A stretch of 32,550 bases of DNA from a virus: the IMG/VR virus record IMGVR_UViG_3300008117_000375, positions 1 to 32,550 of that record, one strand, 5' to 3'. Position numbers and translations under genes: made by a program. Below are positions 2,708-27,682 of this stretch, piece by piece; position 1 is the stretch's first letter, and every line of letters starts with the position of its first letter. Below the pieces are notes generated by a model. That model was not told the DNA's origin and did no database searches. It worked only from the letters and a program-made list of their open reading frames with translations.

Positions 2708-2814
2708 GGCAATGTGATTTTATGCCTTGTTTGGCTATTGCATACAAAACACCTATTGTTGGGTAGTTTCATATTGCCAAGCCAACCACCCATAAACTCA
2801 TTGTACTTGTTCAT
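2704..2814 (-). CDS. 36-residue protein with a CxxC motif
   Basis: This cistron fits exactly between its neighbours. ATG (2812-2814) overlaps the TGA of the upstream 270-residue gene as ATGA, and its own TGA overlaps the TTG start of the downstream gene. The product contains one CFVC pair followed by Arg and His (CNSQTRH), which could bind a metal ion or form a disulfide. The N-terminal part has a Gly/Trp-rich patch (MGGWLGNMKLP). Such tiny genes between connector genes are easily lost from annotations, but the double overlap is hard to explain unless it is translated. Function is unknown; a minor virion part or assembly factor is possible. Confidence 0.6.
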   Translation of the reverse strand: MNKYNEFMGGWLGNMKLPNNRCFVCNSQTRHKITLP

Positions 2815-3623
2815 GTAAAAAGTAAATCTTTCTTGTAATTGTCAGCAGTCTTGTAAGCCAATGGCAAGGCAAGGCTTTCAGCATGGCTACAAATCCAACT
2901 GGTATGGTCGCACTTTACATCATACACAATTGAAAGACCGGCAGTATGATTTAAATAATCAATATTGCTTTCATATTTTGTACCATTGACCTCAACACCT
3001 TGAGATGATAAATAAGAGTTTGCACAACTTACCTTGCCACAACAAAGACCGGCTTTTATTGGTGTAACATATGCATCAATGCCAGTAGCATCATAACCTA
3101 TAAACAAATTCAAAGGTTGCTTATCTGATTTGAAAGATTTATGAAGGTAAACGGTGGCAATTTCTCCGGCAATTGTATCAACTTGTACCATGTCAAGTTG
3201 TTTGTTCTGCCTCAAATCCCAAACCTCTATGTCAATTGTTCCAGTATAATCAACAAGCAAACTTATTTCACCAATTGATACAGAATAAAAACTATCTGCT
3301 TGGTTAAATTTCATTTGTATGCCCCTATAATTTTGACCGGCATACAAGGTTTGTGTTCCATTGTAAATCCCCAACCTATGTGAATCAATCAAAGATGTAG
3401 CAAGGTACTTGTCTTGAAAATGATTGTAAATATGTTGGGACATTTCCCTAACTGCTTGGGTCTGTTTTGCAGAAAAATAATCCTTTGCAGTTGGGTATTG
3501 ACTTGTAATAAATGATTCAATGTCATTCAAAGACAAACCCACATCATCCAAATAAATGGAACTTTTTGGGGTTTGTGTGTTGCATAAAGCTTTAACACCA
3601 ATAAGATTGTTGAAACATTCCAT
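2811..3623 (-). CDS. Putative head-associated structural protein
   Basis: The 270-residue protein is encoded directly after the major capsid gene. It contains seven Cys, including a CC pair (GLCCGK) and nearby Cys (VSCAN, VKCDH, WICSH), so metal binding or cross-linking in the virion is conceivable. The N-terminal third looks helical, with an early motif LDDVGLSLNDIESFI; the rest is beta-rich. No transmembrane segment is present. Position right after the capsid gene suits a head-completion adaptor, a decoration protein or a connector. A GC-rich hairpin separates it from the capsid stop codon, which may lower its expression relative to the capsid. Family not recognised. Confidence 0.5.
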   Translation of the reverse strand: MECFNNLIGVKALCNTQTPKSSIYLDDVGLSLNDIESFITSQYPTAKDYFSAKQTQAVREMSQHIYNHFQDKYLATSLIDSHRLGIYNGTQTLYAGQNYRGIQMKFNQADSFYSVSIGEISLLVDYTGTIDIEVWDLRQNKQLDMVQVDTIAGEIATVYLHKSFKSDKQPLNLFIGYDATGIDAYVTPIKAGLCCGKVSCANSYLSSQGVEVNGTKYESNIDYLNHTAGLSIVYDVKCDHTSWICSHAESLALPLAYKTADNYKKDLLFT

Positions 3624-6613: not shown

Positions 6614-7517
6614 ATAAATCCAATTGATTCAATAATGATTCAGAAGGTTCAAAATTGCCATTATCTATATTCCTTCTAATGTCATCCTTTGGTACTGCAA
6701 AAATTGATACTGGTATGATTGAATGCCTACAATTATAACCACCGGCAGTTGAGTAAATGGTTTTTTCATTTGTGCCATCAATCTTGCCTTGCCATTCCTC
6801 ATCAGCCCATTCCTCTATTTCCTTATAGTAAAAGAATCTGTTGTGCCTTTCCCTACAAAATTCCCTTGTGCTTTCTATGGTATCACCACTATACTTGAAC
6901 CATTCAGCACCAATCTCATCAGCCATAGCTGATGTATATGACCTATCAGCAATTGCAAATTGGTCATGTGCTACTTGCTTGGCATATTGCTGAAGCTTTC
7001 CATCAATCTCATCATTGCCGGTAACAACATCCCTAACGGCTTTGATTGTATCTTTAAAAGAGGCATTATTTGATACTGCTAATTCTATTTGCTCACTTAC
7101 TGCATCAGCAAAAGCCTCATCACCTATTGAATTAATAAGAATGTCGGCAGTATTTTTTTTGCTAATCTTATTGAGTTGATTTGCCAACTCAGTTTCTACA
7201 TTGTCAAATCCTTTTCTTAATAATTGGTTTGTAATCTTTGCTTGTTGGTCAAATTGTTTAGCAAACTCTTTAACGGCACTCACATAATCAGATTGTAACA
7301 ATATATCTTTCAACTGCTCTTTTAATTCAGCAGTCAATTGCAAATTGGTATTGTTAAAAATTATGTTGCCTTGAGCATCAACCTCAAGTTGATTCAACAA
7401 ATCAATTACATCGGGATATAATTCTTTTGTGGCTTTTTCAACGGCAGTTAAAAACTCATCCGGAACCCTTGTAAGCCTAAAAGTTTTCTCCTTAATTAAC
7501 TCATCAAGTGTTGGCAT
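6612..7517 (-). CDS. Mu F / SPP1 gp7-like minor head protein
   Basis: The 301-residue product is helical over its first two thirds and ends in the signature of the phage Mu F-like domain. About residues 217-223 read STREFCRE, then follow RHNRFFYY, a Trp-rich segment (EEWADEEWQGKI), and GGYNCRH near residue 261. The spaced Cys/His residues are the conserved, probably metal-binding, part of the family. These proteins bind the portal and are few per virion, helping procapsid assembly or DNA ejection. Its ATG overlaps the portal stop codon by 1 nt, and portal followed by Mu-F is a standard phage order. No toxin domain is fused at the C-terminus. Confidence 0.8.
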   Translation of the reverse strand: MPTLDELIKEKTFRLTRVPDEFLTAVEKATKELYPDVIDLLNQLEVDAQGNIIFNNTNLQLTAELKEQLKDILLQSDYVSAVKEFAKQFDQQAKITNQLLRKGFDNVETELANQLNKISKKNTADILINSIGDEAFADAVSEQIELAVSNNASFKDTIKAVRDVVTGNDEIDGKLQQYAKQVAHDQFAIADRSYTSAMADEIGAEWFKYSGDTIESTREFCRERHNRFFYYKEIEEWADEEWQGKIDGTNEKTIYSTAGGYNCRHSIIPVSIFAVPKDDIRRNIDNGNFEPSESLLNQLDL

Positions 7518-9425: not shown

Positions 9426-9488
9426 TTATCTTGGTTTAGGTCTTGGGAGTGGTTTAGGTCTTCCGGATGAGCAAGGTTTACAAGCCAT
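9426..9488 (-). CDS. 20-residue basic Pro-rich peptide with CxxC
   Basis: The peptide MACKPCSSGRPKPLPRPKPR is encoded by a frame that overlaps the end of the glycosyltransferase gene by 11 bp and stops 4 nt before the portal start, exactly as a real cistron in this operon would. It holds one CKPC pair and a Pro/Arg/Lys tail that could bind nucleic acid or an acidic partner. It may equally be a leader peptide that couples translation of the portal to the upstream gene. Evidence is spacing and unusual composition only. Confidence 0.4.
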   Translation of the reverse strand: MACKPCSSGRPKPLPRPKPR

Positions 9489-10260
9489 TGTTTTGAGGTA
9501 TTATGTAAGACTTAGAATGATTTATTCGTGTTGAATTTCCAAACAATTCCTTTGTACTTATTGGGTATTTGAATTTTTTACTTTGTAATCTTTTCCAATT
9601 CCTATACAAAGATGCATAACCTTTGTAATATTTGGACTTAAAAACCACATCAGACTCAAAATAATACGAATAATGCTCATACACTTGAGGTAAAGCCTTT
9701 ATTGATTTTTGATATTGCATAATTGGTGGCTCATGGCTTATGAAAGTTTGACCAGTCCACCACCATAGCCTTGTATGTAGGTTGTCACCCCAATCACCTT
9801 TTCCAACCAATTGTTTACCATCCATGTCTTTACAAAGCAAATGATTGAAATGGAAAGCACCGGCAACAGAAACATCTTTGGTCATCATACTTTCAGCCTC
9901 TTCAAAATCTGTTTCTTTCCATTGCTCATCAACATCAATTTGCCAAAGCCAACCATTGGACTCTGATTTAAGCAAACTTATTGCCTTGTTCACTTGCTCA
10001 TCCTTGCTTAACCAACCACCTTTTTTGGAATGGAATAAAATATTAGGGTATTTCTCCATCAATTGAGCAATGTGTTCAATTGTTCCATCAGTTGAATTTT
10101 TTGGAATATTGAGATTATTGCACCAAGCAGTTGAACCTTTATTTCCACTAAACCCTTCAACAATTACCCACTTGTCAAATGAGTTAACCATCACATCAAC
10201 AAAATTACCATTGGTAAGATGATGCAACCCATTGTAGATTATTGTAAAGGCATACCTCAT
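9478..10260 (-). CDS. Glycosyltransferase, GT-A fold (GT2/GT17-like)
   Basis: The best start is the ATG at 10260 (MRYAFTIIYNGLHHL), which forms an ATGA overlap with the methyltransferase stop; an upstream ATG at 10305 would overlap that gene by 49 bp. The 260-residue product has the early GT-A pattern (FDKWVIVEGFSGNKG, then STDGTIEHI). IDVDE at about residues 108-112 contains the metal- and nucleotide-sugar-binding DxD motif. It resembles GT2/GT17 enzymes that transfer sugars from UDP- or GDP-donors. It has no membrane segment, so it works in the cytoplasm on proteins or soluble acceptors. Placed next to the portal gene, it probably decorates phage particles. The acceptor is unknown. Confidence 0.7.
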   Translation of the reverse strand: MRYAFTIIYNGLHHLTNGNFVDVMVNSFDKWVIVEGFSGNKGSTAWCNNLNIPKNSTDGTIEHIAQLMEKYPNILFHSKKGGWLSKDEQVNKAISLLKSESNGWLWQIDVDEQWKETDFEEAESMMTKDVSVAGAFHFNHLLCKDMDGKQLVGKGDWGDNLHTRLWWWTGQTFISHEPPIMQYQKSIKALPQVYEHYSYYFESDVVFKSKYYKGYASLYRNWKRLQSKKFKYPISTKELFGNSTRINHSKSYIIPQNNGL

Positions 10261-10895
10261 TCTATATAATAAATTGCAGAGCCAAAGCCCTCTGATGTTT
10301 CCCAAATCTTTGTAAATCCTCTCTCATCCAATAACTGGCAAGAATGGTAATGCTTTACATGGTTGGTATCATCCAAAGCCAAATAAAAAGGAGCAATTGC
10401 CGTTTTCATAAGTTCTTTAAATTCTATGCAACCAATATGTCCGGCACTATCAAGTATAATCAAATCGGGTTGATACTCTACTTTTTCCAATGCATACTTT
10501 AGCATATTGTCCGGTACTTTAAAGCTTACCTCTTGCTTATACAATAATTCTCTATTGTGGTCAAGATGGTCAACTATAATGTTTTCGGGAACATCAAATG
10601 TAAAATCTGTTGGTAATAATGGTCTTTCAATGGATAAGCCCAAAAGAAAATTTATAGATGTGTTTTTGTGTTTCTTTCTTGCAATTTCATAAAATCTTGG
10701 GTTTACCTCAATGCTATAAACTATCTCATCACCAACCATTGCATCAACAATGGCTTGTGTTGTACCCTCACCCAAATAAGAACCGGTTTCAATTATTCTT
10801 TTGAGCCGATATGTTTTTATAAGTTCAGTTATTGCATACTTAAATTCACCCTTTGCACTCATGCCATTGGGCATTAATTGTTGTGCTATTTGCAT
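10257..10895 (-). CDS. SAM-dependent methyltransferase (class I)
   Basis: The 212-residue product has the Rossmann methyltransferase motifs in order. Motif I is IIETGSYLGEGTT (about residues 34-46), an acidic residue follows in YSIEVNPRF (E63), and the mid-domain strand is DLIILDSAGH. The pattern resembles Methyltransf_24-type enzymes that act on sugars or small molecules, rather than DNA methylases, since no DPPY-like motif or target-recognition domain is present. Lying between glycosyltransferase genes with short overlaps (4 bp downstream, 10 bp upstream), it probably methylates the glycan these enzymes build. Another possibility is methylation of a virion protein. Confidence 0.7.
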   Translation of the reverse strand: MQIAQQLMPNGMSAKGEFKYAITELIKTYRLKRIIETGSYLGEGTTQAIVDAMVGDEIVYSIEVNPRFYEIARKKHKNTSINFLLGLSIERPLLPTDFTFDVPENIIVDHLDHNRELLYKQEVSFKVPDNMLKYALEKVEYQPDLIILDSAGHIGCIEFKELMKTAIAPFYLALDDTNHVKHYHSCQLLDERGFTKIWETSEGFGSAIYYIE

Positions 10896-11119
10896 CTCAT
10901 TATTTTTTTTACAACATCATATGTTTCATTTACAACCAATGTATCACCATTGTTAAAATTCAATAAGGTGCATTCTGTATCTGTTTCATTGATGTAGGTT
11001 TGATTGAAAGAATATACCTCTGCAAGGTTTACCATTGCCCTTACACTTTTTGAAGATGTCACCCCAACCTCTTCAAGTTGCTTGTCATAAACGGTTACGC
11101 TAAACTCGTACCAAATCAT
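10886..11119 (-). CDS. Small protein, FlbD-like
   Basis: This 77-residue protein is short and beta-rich with a C-terminal pattern (LLNFNNGDTLVVNETYDVV) that recalls FlbD-type small domains, in which a strand, a tight NGD turn and a VxE segment precede the last helix. FlbD proteins were first seen in flagellar operons and their exact role is unclear. It overlaps the glycosyltransferase upstream by 20 bp and the methyltransferase by 10 bp, so it belongs to the same transcript. It could be an accessory factor of the glycan cassette. The family link is from memory of the pattern and is weak. Confidence 0.5.
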   Translation of the reverse strand: MIWYEFSVTVYDKQLEEVGVTSSKSVRAMVNLAEVYSFNQTYINETDTECTLLNFNNGDTLVVNETYDVVKKIMRCK

Positions 11120-12002
11120 AAGAATGCCATTTTTTAGTGAGTATTGTCCGGTCTGCCCTCATTGGTACTTTATCAGTTATGTAATAATAAAGTTCAGCTT
11201 TCAAATCCTTGAAGCTATCAACAAAGTTAACTAAGCTTGAGTCTATACAATGTATTTCTGAAGCATTCTCAATCACTTTTGCCCAATCAAAAATCTGATA
11301 GTTTTTCCCAACAATCGGCTCAAAATATACCACCCTCTTATCAGTAACCACATCAATGGCAGTACCATAATCAGAACCCCTATGCACAAGGATATAATCA
11401 CCCCCATTGTCCAATCCAAGATGATTAAAAAGAGCATTCTCCAATTCATTGTTCCGTGTATAATTAAGATTGCGAAGAGCCAATAAAGGGACTCCAGCAA
11501 TTTGGTATTTGAGTTCAACAAATGACTTGAGTCTGTTTTTTTGCCTAATCCAAAGCCTATGCACATCCGAATTTGTAATGATTCCAAAAGACATATCAAT
11601 GATTTTATCATATTGATTGTCTTGAGTAGCAACTGGCTTGGCATAATCCACATAATTGAAAAGTGAATGATATTGATTAGGGCATAACCATTCAACAACC
11701 CAACCTTGCTTTGAATAATGCTCTGCAATAGGTAAACAACATATGATGTCACCAACTTTGCCCGGTTGATGTATCAAAAGTTTTTTGGATTTGTATTTTG
11801 TCCAATCTTCAATTTTCACCGGTATTACTTGACCTTGCAACCTATCTTTTTCTGTATAATTCCTTTTGTTGGTTATATGCAAATGATATGATTTGATTGA
11901 CAATGATGGATTGATTGGTTGTAATCCTATTTGTGCAAGTTCATAAGCAAAACGATTATCACAAGCCGGTAGCCCCATTGTAAAATTTATATTTTCCATC
12001 AA
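11100..12002 (-). CDS. Glycosyltransferase, GT-B fold (GT9-like), with a foreign N-terminus
   Basis: Most of the 300-residue product looks like a heptosyltransferase-type GT-B enzyme. LIHQPGKVGDIICCLP (about residues 76-91) matches the N-terminal donor/acceptor loop, YILVHRGSDYG lies near 207-217, and IHCIDSSLVNFVDSF near 252-266 is the usual C-terminal motif. The first 55 residues do not belong to this fold: LPACDNRFAYELAQIG followed by NPSLSIKSYHLH and NKRNY is a pattern I associate with the C-terminal end of another phage glycosyltransferase type. The gene overlaps its upstream neighbour by ATGA. The foreign N-terminus is discussed as a finding. Confidence 0.65.
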   Translation of the reverse strand: MMENINFTMGLPACDNRFAYELAQIGLQPINPSLSIKSYHLHITNKRNYTEKDRLQGQVIPVKIEDWTKYKSKKLLIHQPGKVGDIICCLPIAEHYSKQGWVVEWLCPNQYHSLFNYVDYAKPVATQDNQYDKIIDMSFGIITNSDVHRLWIRQKNRLKSFVELKYQIAGVPLLALRNLNYTRNNELENALFNHLGLDNGGDYILVHRGSDYGTAIDVVTDKRVVYFEPIVGKNYQIFDWAKVIENASEIHCIDSSLVNFVDSFKDLKAELYYYITDKVPMRADRTILTKKWHSYDLVRV

Positions 12003-13111
12003 TGGTGGCTTTCCATTAAATACCCATGTGTCTTGACTCCATTTTCATAATGCTTACCCAAATTAATTATAAGGTCAATGGATTGGCAATTTATGTTTGC
12101 TTCCATTACCTTTCTTAATTCCCTTTGCCTATCATTATACCTTTGCTCAAAGTATGAAGTCAAGAGAATAACTTTACCCTCTTTCTTTGGGTATTTTTTA
12201 GCATCGGGTTTTATTAAATTTGAGCCAATGATTGCCTTTTGATGGTTTGCCCTATTGCTTGTTTGATTTGCAATTTTATCACCTTTGATTAGATGGCTTT
12301 TAAATATATGCCTTCCCCCTCTTGAAGCACACATTTTTTGTAAAAGCTTATCATAATACTCCCAAAAGAAAAGCTTTATGTTGTTTCTCCATCCAAAATA
12401 TGAAATGAAATAATGGGTTTGAACCAGTTCATGTGGTCGCTTTTCTCCATTGTTGCCAAACCACATGGTGTTAATTCCAATGTGATTTATTTCTCCTTGC
12501 TTGGCAAGTGCAACATTTAAATATAACTCATCCGGTTGACCACCACCCCACTTGTTTCTAAGCCTTTCCAATGGTATTGGATTATCAAAAGCCTCATTAA
12601 ATAAATGGTAAAGTTCTTTGGTCTTTTTACAATCTTTAATGTACTGGATTGAGCTTTGGGTTGCCGGAAATTTAGTTGTATGGTCAAACCCATAATGTTG
12701 CCAAATGTCCTCTTTATATGCCCAATACATATCGGGCAAAATGTTAGGAGCATTTATGTCATAAATTGCGTTTATATATGTGGCATAATGCTTATCACTT
12801 TCTATAAGCCTATCAAATAAGGGCTCAATGGGTTGAATACACAAGCCATCAACATCTAAAAACAATGTATGTTTGAATGGTAGCTTATACCCTATTTCAG
12901 CTTTGAACCTACCGGGGTCGGGGGGGCTTTGTTCCAACCATTCTATAAAATCAAAAACTGAATGGTCTGTTACCTCTTTTAAAACCTCTCTTGTTGCAAT
13001 TAAATGGATAGGAATATTGGGACTATAATACTTGCAAGAGAGGGCAAGGTTATAAGCCATAAAGCCATATCCTCGCCTCCCAAATGCAAGTAATAAAATC
13101 CCTTTATCCAT
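11999..13111 (-). CDS. Glycosyltransferase, GT-A (GT8-like), with a foreign C-terminus
   Basis: The 370-residue product begins with a Rossmann-like strand (GILLLAFGRRGYG) and carries the DxD metal motif in LFLDVDGLC (about residues 83-91), then GGGQPDELYLNVAL (about 189-202) and HYFISYFGWRNN, which fits GT8-like nucleotide-sugar transferases. From about residue 313 a new domain seems to begin: VILLTSYFEQRYNDRQREL looks like the N-terminal start of a second transferase type, but the protein stops 50 residues later (GYLMESHH). It is the first gene of the cassette, 9 nt after the tail-tube gene, so the cassette is probably co-transcribed with the tail tube. Confidence 0.65.
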   Translation of the reverse strand: MDKGILLLAFGRRGYGFMAYNLALSCKYYSPNIPIHLIATREVLKEVTDHSVFDFIEWLEQSPPDPGRFKAEIGYKLPFKHTLFLDVDGLCIQPIEPLFDRLIESDKHYATYINAIYDINAPNILPDMYWAYKEDIWQHYGFDHTTKFPATQSSIQYIKDCKKTKELYHLFNEAFDNPIPLERLRNKWGGGQPDELYLNVALAKQGEINHIGINTMWFGNNGEKRPHELVQTHYFISYFGWRNNIKLFFWEYYDKLLQKMCASRGGRHIFKSHLIKGDKIANQTSNRANHQKAIIGSNLIKPDAKKYPKKEGKVILLTSYFEQRYNDRQRELRKVMEANINCQSIDLIINLGKHYENGVKTHGYLMESHH

Positions 13112-27237: not shown

Positions 27238-27432
27238 TTACAATATTGTACCTTCAAGTTGAACCTCTGCCTTTGATTTGGTTTGTTCCTCACTTACCTT
27301 AAGGTGAATATTCAACTCATTAAGTTTTTTTTTGAGTTTGTCAGCAAGGTAAATTATTTCTTGCACCTCTTTTTCAAACTCTTCTTTGTTGGTGGTATAA
27401 TTCACCTTAACCTCAATCATTGGTTGGTTCAT
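27238..27432 (-). CDS. Small coiled-coil-like phage protein, unknown
   Basis: The 64-residue product (MNQPMIEVKVNYTTNKEEF...) has a short strand followed by a charged helix (EVQEIIYLADKLKKKLNEL) and a C-terminal strand. The start overlaps the stop of the preceding 40-codon gene as ATGA. It has no membrane segment or catalytic motif. Short helical proteins of this kind occur often in the early-to-packaging gap of phages. Function unknown. Confidence 0.55.
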   Translation of the reverse strand: MNQPMIEVKVNYTTNKEEFEKEVQEIIYLADKLKKKLNELNIHLKVSEEQTKSKAEVQLEGTIL

Positions 27433-27551
27433 TTCTTTTTCTTTCTTGTTACAATTAGTTTGCCATTTCTTTCAGTTACTTTCATTCCGGCTTGTTCAGT
27501 TTGCTTTTTCAACTGGCTATACTTTTGGGCAGTAGTTAGTTTTTTTGCCAT
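27429..27551 (-). CDS. 40-residue basic phage protein
   Basis: The product MAKKLTTAQKYSQLKKQTEQ... has a helix, a strand ending in AGMKVTERNGKLIVTRKKKK, and a strongly basic C-terminus. This helix-strand pattern with NGKLIVTRK is familiar from small phage proteins of unknown function. The ATG overlaps the upstream stop by 1 nt (TAATG) and the TGA overlaps the downstream start (ATGA), so the frame is well supported although short. Nucleic-acid binding is possible from charge. Confidence 0.6.
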   Translation of the reverse strand: MAKKLTTAQKYSQLKKQTEQAGMKVTERNGKLIVTRKKKK

Positions 27552-27682
27552 TATTTCTTTTTCTTTAGTTTTTCGGGTAATGACTTGTAAGCACTTTTAG
27601 AAGTCTTTTTGGCAAACTCTCTGCAAAGTTCCTTATTGGTTGCACAGATAAACCTTTGTTGTGCTTTTGATACAAATGGCAT
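27551..27682 (-). CDS. 43-residue phage protein of the SKAQQRF type
   Basis: The product MPFVSKAQQRFICATNKELC... matches a small widespread phage pattern, beginning (K)SKAQQRF and ending KSLPEKLKKKK, with a Ser/Thr linker between. Members are of unknown function and probably bind nucleic acid or another small phage protein. It overlaps the next gene by 1 nt as TAATG and ends 3 nt from the preceding one. It has no membrane segment. The family memory is good but the molecular role is not known. Confidence 0.6.
   Translation of the reverse strand: MPFVSKAQQRFICATNKELCREFAKKTSKSAYKSLPEKLKKKK

What the first reader, a model, noticed from the sequence alone, without database searches (positions are those of the whole stretch)
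11100..13111. A deleted third glycosyltransferase seems to survive as two halves fused to its neighbours
The C-terminal ~58 residues of the GT8-like gene (VILLTSYFEQRYNDRQREL and on) look like the N-terminal start of a GT2-type phage transferase. The first ~55 residues of the next gene (CDNRFAYELAQIG, NPSLSIKSYHLH) look like the C-terminal end of that same type. They face each other across the ATGA junction at 11999-12002 and are in different frames, as if an internal deletion with a frame change removed the middle of a third gene and left its ends attached to both neighbours. The family patterns are recalled, not searched.
Basis: partly seen in the sequence, partly recalled or inferred. Interest (0 to 1): 0.65.

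Follow-up and report, generated by a model that had tools for sequence, protein, structure and literature searches.

The report
Broken three-part phage sugar-transfer enzyme
The two neighbouring phage genes are the two ends of what is, in 25 of 27 related contigs, a single three-part sugar-transferring enzyme; here 223 bases of the middle part are missing, and comparison with near-identical contigs suggests this is more likely an assembly error than real evolution.

Summary
Residues 313-354 of the first protein match positions 1-42, and residues 3-51 of the second match positions 138-186, of one profile built only from standalone phage homologues (E 2.6e-5 and 2.1e-15; best of 10,000 shuffles 0.12). 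The deletion with frame change is also right at sequence level. A contig 98-99% identical (L001) and 24 other related contigs carry ONE open frame of about 740-757 codons: GT8-like, GT-A/GT2-like middle, GT9-like. The window lacks 223 bp of the middle domain, including the NSD motif. The first protein's tail VKTHGYLMESHH is the wrong-frame reading of SQDTWVFNGKPPL.

Two corrections follow. There was no third gene between two neighbours: all three domains are ancestrally one gene. And the deletion is probably not biological. The window has a second, 73-bp frame-breaking gap at 2841|2842 that a 99.4% identical contig lacks. Other contigs of this phage group carry one to five private 11-255 bp gaps each, in various genes, against partners 98-100% identical. 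The window's two junctions occur in no other IMG/VR contig. Assembly or library artefact is favoured (about 0.7) over a real recent deletion (about 0.25).

The parts
12182..13111 (-). Domain 1, GT8-like glycosyltransferase (residues 1-310 of the broken 744-codon gene), with LDVD as DxD-like motif
   Evidence: 99% identical to L001 codons 1-310; full-length model of the L001 protein matches glycogenin/LgtC structures by fold, low-confidence model
12041..12178 (-). N-terminal remnant (46 residues) of the middle GT-A/GT2-like domain
   Evidence: 100% identical to L001 middle-domain residues 1-46 (L004 row); matches standalone-homologue profile positions 1-42
12040..12043 (.). Deletion junction: 223 bp present in L001 are missing; 4-bp junction homology AATG, within an imperfect repeat TTATGAA(AA)TG
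   Evidence: base-by-base comparison with L001 and L002
11999..12040 (-). Out-of-frame tail of the first ORF (VKTHGYLMESHH and stop TGA), a wrong-frame reading of SQDTWVFNGKPPL; the stop overlaps ATG (TGATG)
   Evidence: translations in three frames; tail maps to L001 7292-7333 in another frame
11829..12039 (-). C-terminal remnant (about 71 residues, WSQDTWVF...DNRFAYE...YHLH) of the middle domain
   Evidence: 98% identical to L001 middle-domain residues 120-191; profile positions 138-186 matched
11100..11819 (-). Domain 3, GT9-like (heptosyltransferase-type) domain with stop
   Evidence: 99% identical to L001 codons 506-744; low-confidence model matches heptosyltransferase II, TibC and a GT9 structure by fold
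10257..10895 (-). Next gene of the presumed cassette (212 aa, no family hit)
   Evidence: conserved in the same order in the related contigs; no family hit
9478..10260 (-). Next gene, GT2-like glycosyltransferase (ATG at 10260)
   Evidence: Pfam Glycos_transf_2 E 2.7e-4, just below the curated cut-off; conserved order
2841..2842 (.). Second frame-breaking lesion of the same kind: 73 bp missing near the 3' end of a conserved ~343-aa gene (window ORF 2811-3623 is cut to 270 aa)
   Evidence: intact in G002, G003, G007, G011, G015 and in the 99.4% identical contig G016/L214

Best explanation
The two ORFs are the two ends of one conserved gene for a three-domain glycosyltransferase: GT8-like, then a GT-A/GT2-like middle domain, then GT9-like. 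In this record 223 bp (about 74 codons) of the middle domain are missing. This changes the frame, stops the first ORF after 12 wrong-frame codons, and makes the rest look like a second gene starting at an internal ATG. The gap most likely arose during library construction or assembly, not in the phage. The intact enzyme probably adds sugars in succession to a virion or host glycan, in a cassette with the neighbouring genes. Shown: the one-gene architecture in relatives, the 223-bp gap, the frame change, and private gaps of the same kind in sister contigs. Inferred: the artefactual origin and the sugar-transfer role.
For: Architecture: L001 and L002 carry single intact 744-codon ORFs, as do 25 of 27 related contigs. 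Gap: 223 bp at 12043-12040. Both remnants match one profile. The middle domain of L001 folds with confidence as a GT-A transferase (pLDDT 91) matching chondroitin synthase/polymerase and GalNAc-T2. Domains 1 and 3 resemble GT8 glycogenin and GT9 heptosyltransferase. Artefact: (1) the window has a second frame-breaking gap, 73 bp at 2841|2842, intact in G016, which is 99.4% identical; G016 ends just past that point. (2) G016 itself lacks 87 bp that the window and G001 both have. (3) G003 lacks 121, 255 and 157 bp against G004, 99.7-100% identical; G006 lacks 113, 133 and 88 bp, and has gaps of 49 and 11 bases, against G007, with which G008 and G009 agree without gaps. (4) Each of these lesions is seen in one contig only and they fall in several genes; both window junctions are absent from IMG/VR viral contigs. 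(5) Across 142 near-identical locus pairs, most large gaps lie in the G003 and G006 contigs. (6) No relaxed constraint in the retained middle-domain codons: 3 synonymous and 0 non-synonymous differences from L001.
Against: The closest contig covering the junction (G001) differs from the window by about 1.2-1.6%, so the gap was not shown against an identical genome. The junction has 4 bp of homology inside a longer imperfect repeat, as in real slippage deletions. The window has only two such gaps, fewer per kb than G003 or G006. No reads were available. The tools warn that records very near the window may be left out of the searches.
Confidence: 0.7

Rival explanations
1. A real, recent 223-bp deletion by slippage between short imperfect repeats in this phage lineage. 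The middle transferase is dead; the GT8-like and GT9-like domains may still be made as two proteins, the second by re-initiation at TGATG.
For: Junction homology AATG within TTATGAA(AA)TG; the stop overlaps a usable ATG that is also a Met codon in L001, L002 and L003; both halves otherwise intact, with few non-synonymous changes from L001.
Against: Second unrelated frame-breaking gap in the same contig, intact in a 99.4% identical contig; private gaps of the same kind in sister contigs, including 3 in about 10 kb against a 99.7-100% identical partner; junction seen nowhere else.
Confidence: 0.25
2. Two separate full-length genes that merely have terminal extensions resembling a GT2 family.
For: Two ORFs with overlapping stop and start, as in ordinary phage operons.
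Against: No related contig found has the two-ORF form with the same ends; 25 of 27 have one ORF with a complete middle domain. The first protein's tail is a wrong-frame reading of a conserved motif.
Confidence: 0.02
3. Recurrent biological loss in this gene (phase-variation-like or relaxed selection) across the phage group.
For: Three contigs have independent frame-breaking gaps in this one gene: window 223 bp, L013 121 bp, L003 173 bp.
Against: The same or related contigs also have gaps elsewhere (neighbour gene in L103; several in G003 and G006); L013 is 99.7-100% identical to intact L007; no lesion is shared.
Confidence: 0.03

Closest known systems
GT-A fold, GT2-like transferases (chondroitin polymerase K4CP, ppGalNAc-T2, WrtF)
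   Same: The middle domain of the intact relative folds as GT-A (Foldseek E 1e-7 to 1e-5), with a conserved NSD motif resembling DxD
   Different: Short (about 190 aa); no meaningful Pfam or PHROG hit; about 10% sequence identity to solved structures
Standalone phage homologues of the middle domain (Synechococcus phage S-SKS1 SWZG_00036; uncultured Caudovirales protein A0A6J5PQ76)
   Same: Same domain over 96-97% of its length; best viral structure match E 2e-19, TM 0.88
   Different: A gene of its own, not fused to GT8-like and GT9-like domains
GT8 (glycogenin, LgtC)
   Same: Fold match of domain 1 in a low-confidence full-length model; LDVD motif
   Different: Very low sequence identity; no Pfam hit
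GT9 heptosyltransferases (E. coli heptosyltransferase II, TibC)
   Same: Fold match of domain 3 in the same low-confidence model
   Different: Very low sequence identity; no Pfam hit; substrate unknown
Intact three-domain proteins in IMG/VR contigs 3300007094_000038 and 3300016263_000308
   Same: Same gene, same neighbours, domains 99-100% and 80-91% identical
   Different: Uninterrupted 744-codon ORF

Membership tests
GT-A/GT2-like transferase (middle domain) | GT-A nucleotide-sugar-binding fold in the intact relative | tested here: met
   Confident model of the L001 domain (pLDDT 91) matches GT-A enzymes
GT-A/GT2-like transferase (middle domain) | DxD-like metal/nucleotide motif present in the window copy | tested here: not met
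   NSDIYF lies in the deleted stretch; 10 of 24 near-invariant positions are lost; the window copy is not a working member
GT-A/GT2-like transferase (middle domain) | Sugar transfer activity | not testable with these tools
   needs an enzyme assay
Both ends from one family | Complementary, non-overlapping matches to one independent profile, above shuffles | tested here: met
   E 2.6e-5 and 2.1e-15 versus best shuffle 0.12
GT8 (domain 1) | GT8 fold | tested here: inconclusive
   Glycogenin matches E 4e-5, but model pLDDT is 55 overall
GT9 (domain 3) | GT-B heptosyltransferase fold | tested here: inconclusive
   1psw, TibC and 3tov matches E about 6e-4 to 1e-3 on the same low-confidence model
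Biological gene fission | Split form shared by at least one independent genome | tested here: not met
   Junction absent from other IMG/VR viral contigs; relatives fused or with different private gaps
Assembly/library artefact | Gaps private to one contig, in various genes, without matching sequence divergence | tested here: inconclusive
   Met for sister contigs G003, G006; for the window the second gap is absent from a 99.4% identical contig, but at the 223-bp site the nearest comparator is 98-99%, not identical
Assembly/library artefact | Reads contradict the junction | not testable with these tools
   raw reads not available

The most novel reading that the evidence does not exclude
The deletion is real: a phage lineage has recently split a three-domain glycosyltransferase into two coupled proteins by deleting the catalytic core of the middle enzyme, so that one sugar-transfer step is lost while the two flanking ones remain. 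This would be natural domain loss caught in the act.
Probability: 0.2. Interest if true: 0.45.

Novelty: not a real feature. Interest (0 to 1): 0.22.

Why it matters
It shows how a reasonable reading of raw sequence (domain loss with gene fission) can reflect a contig defect; annotators would otherwise record two false genes with false ends. The useful by-product is a conserved, unannotated three-domain (GT8-like, GT-A/GT2-like, GT9-like) glycosyltransferase in a group of related phage contigs, lying among virion structural genes and suited to a test of stepwise sugar addition by one phage protein. It is also a warning to users of such contigs: short private gaps of about 10-255 bp occur in several of these IMG/VR records.

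Tried and rejected
Family libraries: Pfam, PHROGs and NCBIfam gave no meaningful hits for the three-domain protein, and Pfam and PHROGs none for the middle domain; PDB sequence searches gave nothing convincing. Bacterial genomes: one genome-contig scan with the middle domain found no relative. Idea rejected: recurrent biological loss in this gene, first suggested by three independent gaps, because whole-contig controls showed the same kind of gap elsewhere in these contigs. Idea rejected: two genes with natural extensions, because relatives are fused. The first full-length structure model was of low confidence, so domains 1 and 3 are only tentatively placed. Paper searches for the assembler problem or the sample identifiers gave nothing usable, so no cause inside a particular assembly pipeline is claimed. 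In one search my script was off by one for the window/G001 junction (printed 224 bp, 9 bp homology) and stopped with an error before its last step; the direct comparison (223 bp, AATG) is used.

Full report
What is in the window. On the minus strand, ORF 13111-11999 (370 aa, P0001) is followed by ORF 12002-11100 (300 aa, P0002). The stop TGA (12001-11999) overlaps an ATG (11999-11997), giving TGATG.

Test of the observation. I collected middle-domain relatives from viral contigs and built a profile from 27 standalone phage homologues only, excluding the window's own gene family. P0001 residues 313-354 match profile positions 1-42 (E 2.6e-5) and P0002 residues 3-51 match positions 138-186 (E 2.1e-15); the best of 10,000 shuffled sequences had E 0.12. 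Synechococcus phage S-SKS1 carries the domain as a gene of its own.

Relatives with the complete gene. L001 (98-99% identical) and L002 (about 83% at DNA level in this gene) each have one 744-codon ORF covering P0001, the middle and P0002. A search with domain 1 gave 25 contigs, and L014 and L015 bring the number to 27; 25 of the 27 have the intact fused ORF (about 740-757 codons where complete), generally in the order 184-aa gene, three-domain gene, 212-aa gene, GT2-like gene. So the ancestral state is one gene, not a third gene between two neighbours.

The lesion. Against L001 the window lacks 223 bp, joined at AATG (12043-12040), inside an imperfect repeat TTATGAA(AA)TG. 223 is not a multiple of three. 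The last residues of P0001, VKTHGYLMESHH, are therefore the wrong-frame reading of SQDTWVFNGKPPL. The missing piece contains the NSDIYF and LSRWD motifs and 10 of the 24 near-invariant positions.

What the domains are. The intact middle domain gives a confident model (pLDDT 91, pTM 0.89) whose nearest solved structures are GT-A enzymes such as chondroitin synthase/polymerase and GalNAc-T2; its nearest viral models are phage and giant-virus proteins, several of them named glycosyltransferases. The full-length model is poor (pLDDT 55), but domain 1 resembles glycogenin (GT8) and domain 3 heptosyltransferases (GT9). No Pfam, PHROG or NCBIfam family describes the protein. A transferase that adds sugars in succession is the likely function; this is inference.

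Is the deletion biological? Two other contigs have frame-breaking gaps in the same gene: L013 (121 bp) and L003 (173 bp), which first suggested recurrent loss. The control was to compare whole contigs. G003 (the L013 contig) matches G004 at 99.7-100% yet lacks 121, 255 and 157 bp. G006 is 100% identical to G007 over its first 7.5 kb and 98.7-99% beyond (the difference being mostly gaps), yet lacks 113, 133 and 88 bp and has gaps of 49 and 11 bases, while G007, G008 and G009 agree without gaps. Among 142 near-identical locus pairs most large gaps lie in these two contigs; the exceptions are a 415-bp gap in L026 and a 23-bp gap in L020. Three to five deletions in 10-12 kb with almost no substitutions is not a plausible natural pattern, and the affected stretches are not confined to one gene.

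The window shows the same signs. At 2841|2842 it lacks 73 bp of a conserved ~343-aa gene; contig G016 (L214), 99.4% identical there, has the intact sequence and ends just beyond it. G016 in turn lacks 87 bp that the window and G001 both have, and G001 lacks 122 bp, with a 14-bp repeat, that the window has. Neither window junction occurs in another IMG/VR viral contig. Each of these gaps was seen in one contig only. The retained middle-domain codons show 3 synonymous and no non-synonymous differences from L001, so there has been no visible decay.

Limits. At the 223-bp site the nearest comparator is 98-99% identical, not identical; the window has fewer gaps per kb than G003 or G006; junction homology would also suit a real slippage deletion; the tools warn that records very near the window may be left out; and no reads were available. 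I therefore put artefact at about 0.7 and a real recent deletion at about 0.25.

Verdict. Observation confirmed; interpretation partly supported. The two ORFs should be annotated as one interrupted three-domain glycosyltransferase gene, with the interruption flagged as a probable assembly or library error until reads are checked. The label 'not a real feature' refers to the split; the intact three-domain gene in the relatives is real and would count as a new member of a known kind (multi-domain glycosyltransferases).

Noticed in passing
window 2841|2842: 73 bp missing near the 3' end of a conserved ~343-aa gene; the window ORF is cut short and frame-shifted, while a 99.4% identical contig (L214/G016) is intact.
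   Followed up: yes
window 27431-27552: 122 bp present in the window but absent from the 98.4% identical contig G001, flanked by a 14-bp repeat ATTTCTTTTTCTTT.
   Followed up: partly
window 6735-6821: 87 bp present in the window and G001 but absent from G016 (IMG/VR 3300008266_007028), inside the head-morphogenesis-like gene.
   Followed up: partly
L103 (contig 3300008266_008236) 3851-3854: 113-bp frame-breaking gap in the gene next to the three-domain gene, absent from near-identical contigs L104-L107.
   Followed up: yes
L026 versus L016, L017, L022: A 415-bp presence/absence difference upstream of a standalone middle-domain gene, at 97-98% identity; could be real gene gain or loss.
   Followed up: no
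window 9478-10895: The two genes after the three-domain gene (212 aa of unknown function; GT2-like, 260 aa from its ATG) are conserved in order and may belong to one glycan cassette placed just before the portal gene.
   Followed up: partly
middle-domain model of L001 6934-7506: Close structural matches in giant viruses (Cedratvirus, Pithovirus), some in larger proteins: the domain is shared between phages and giant viruses.
   Followed up: no
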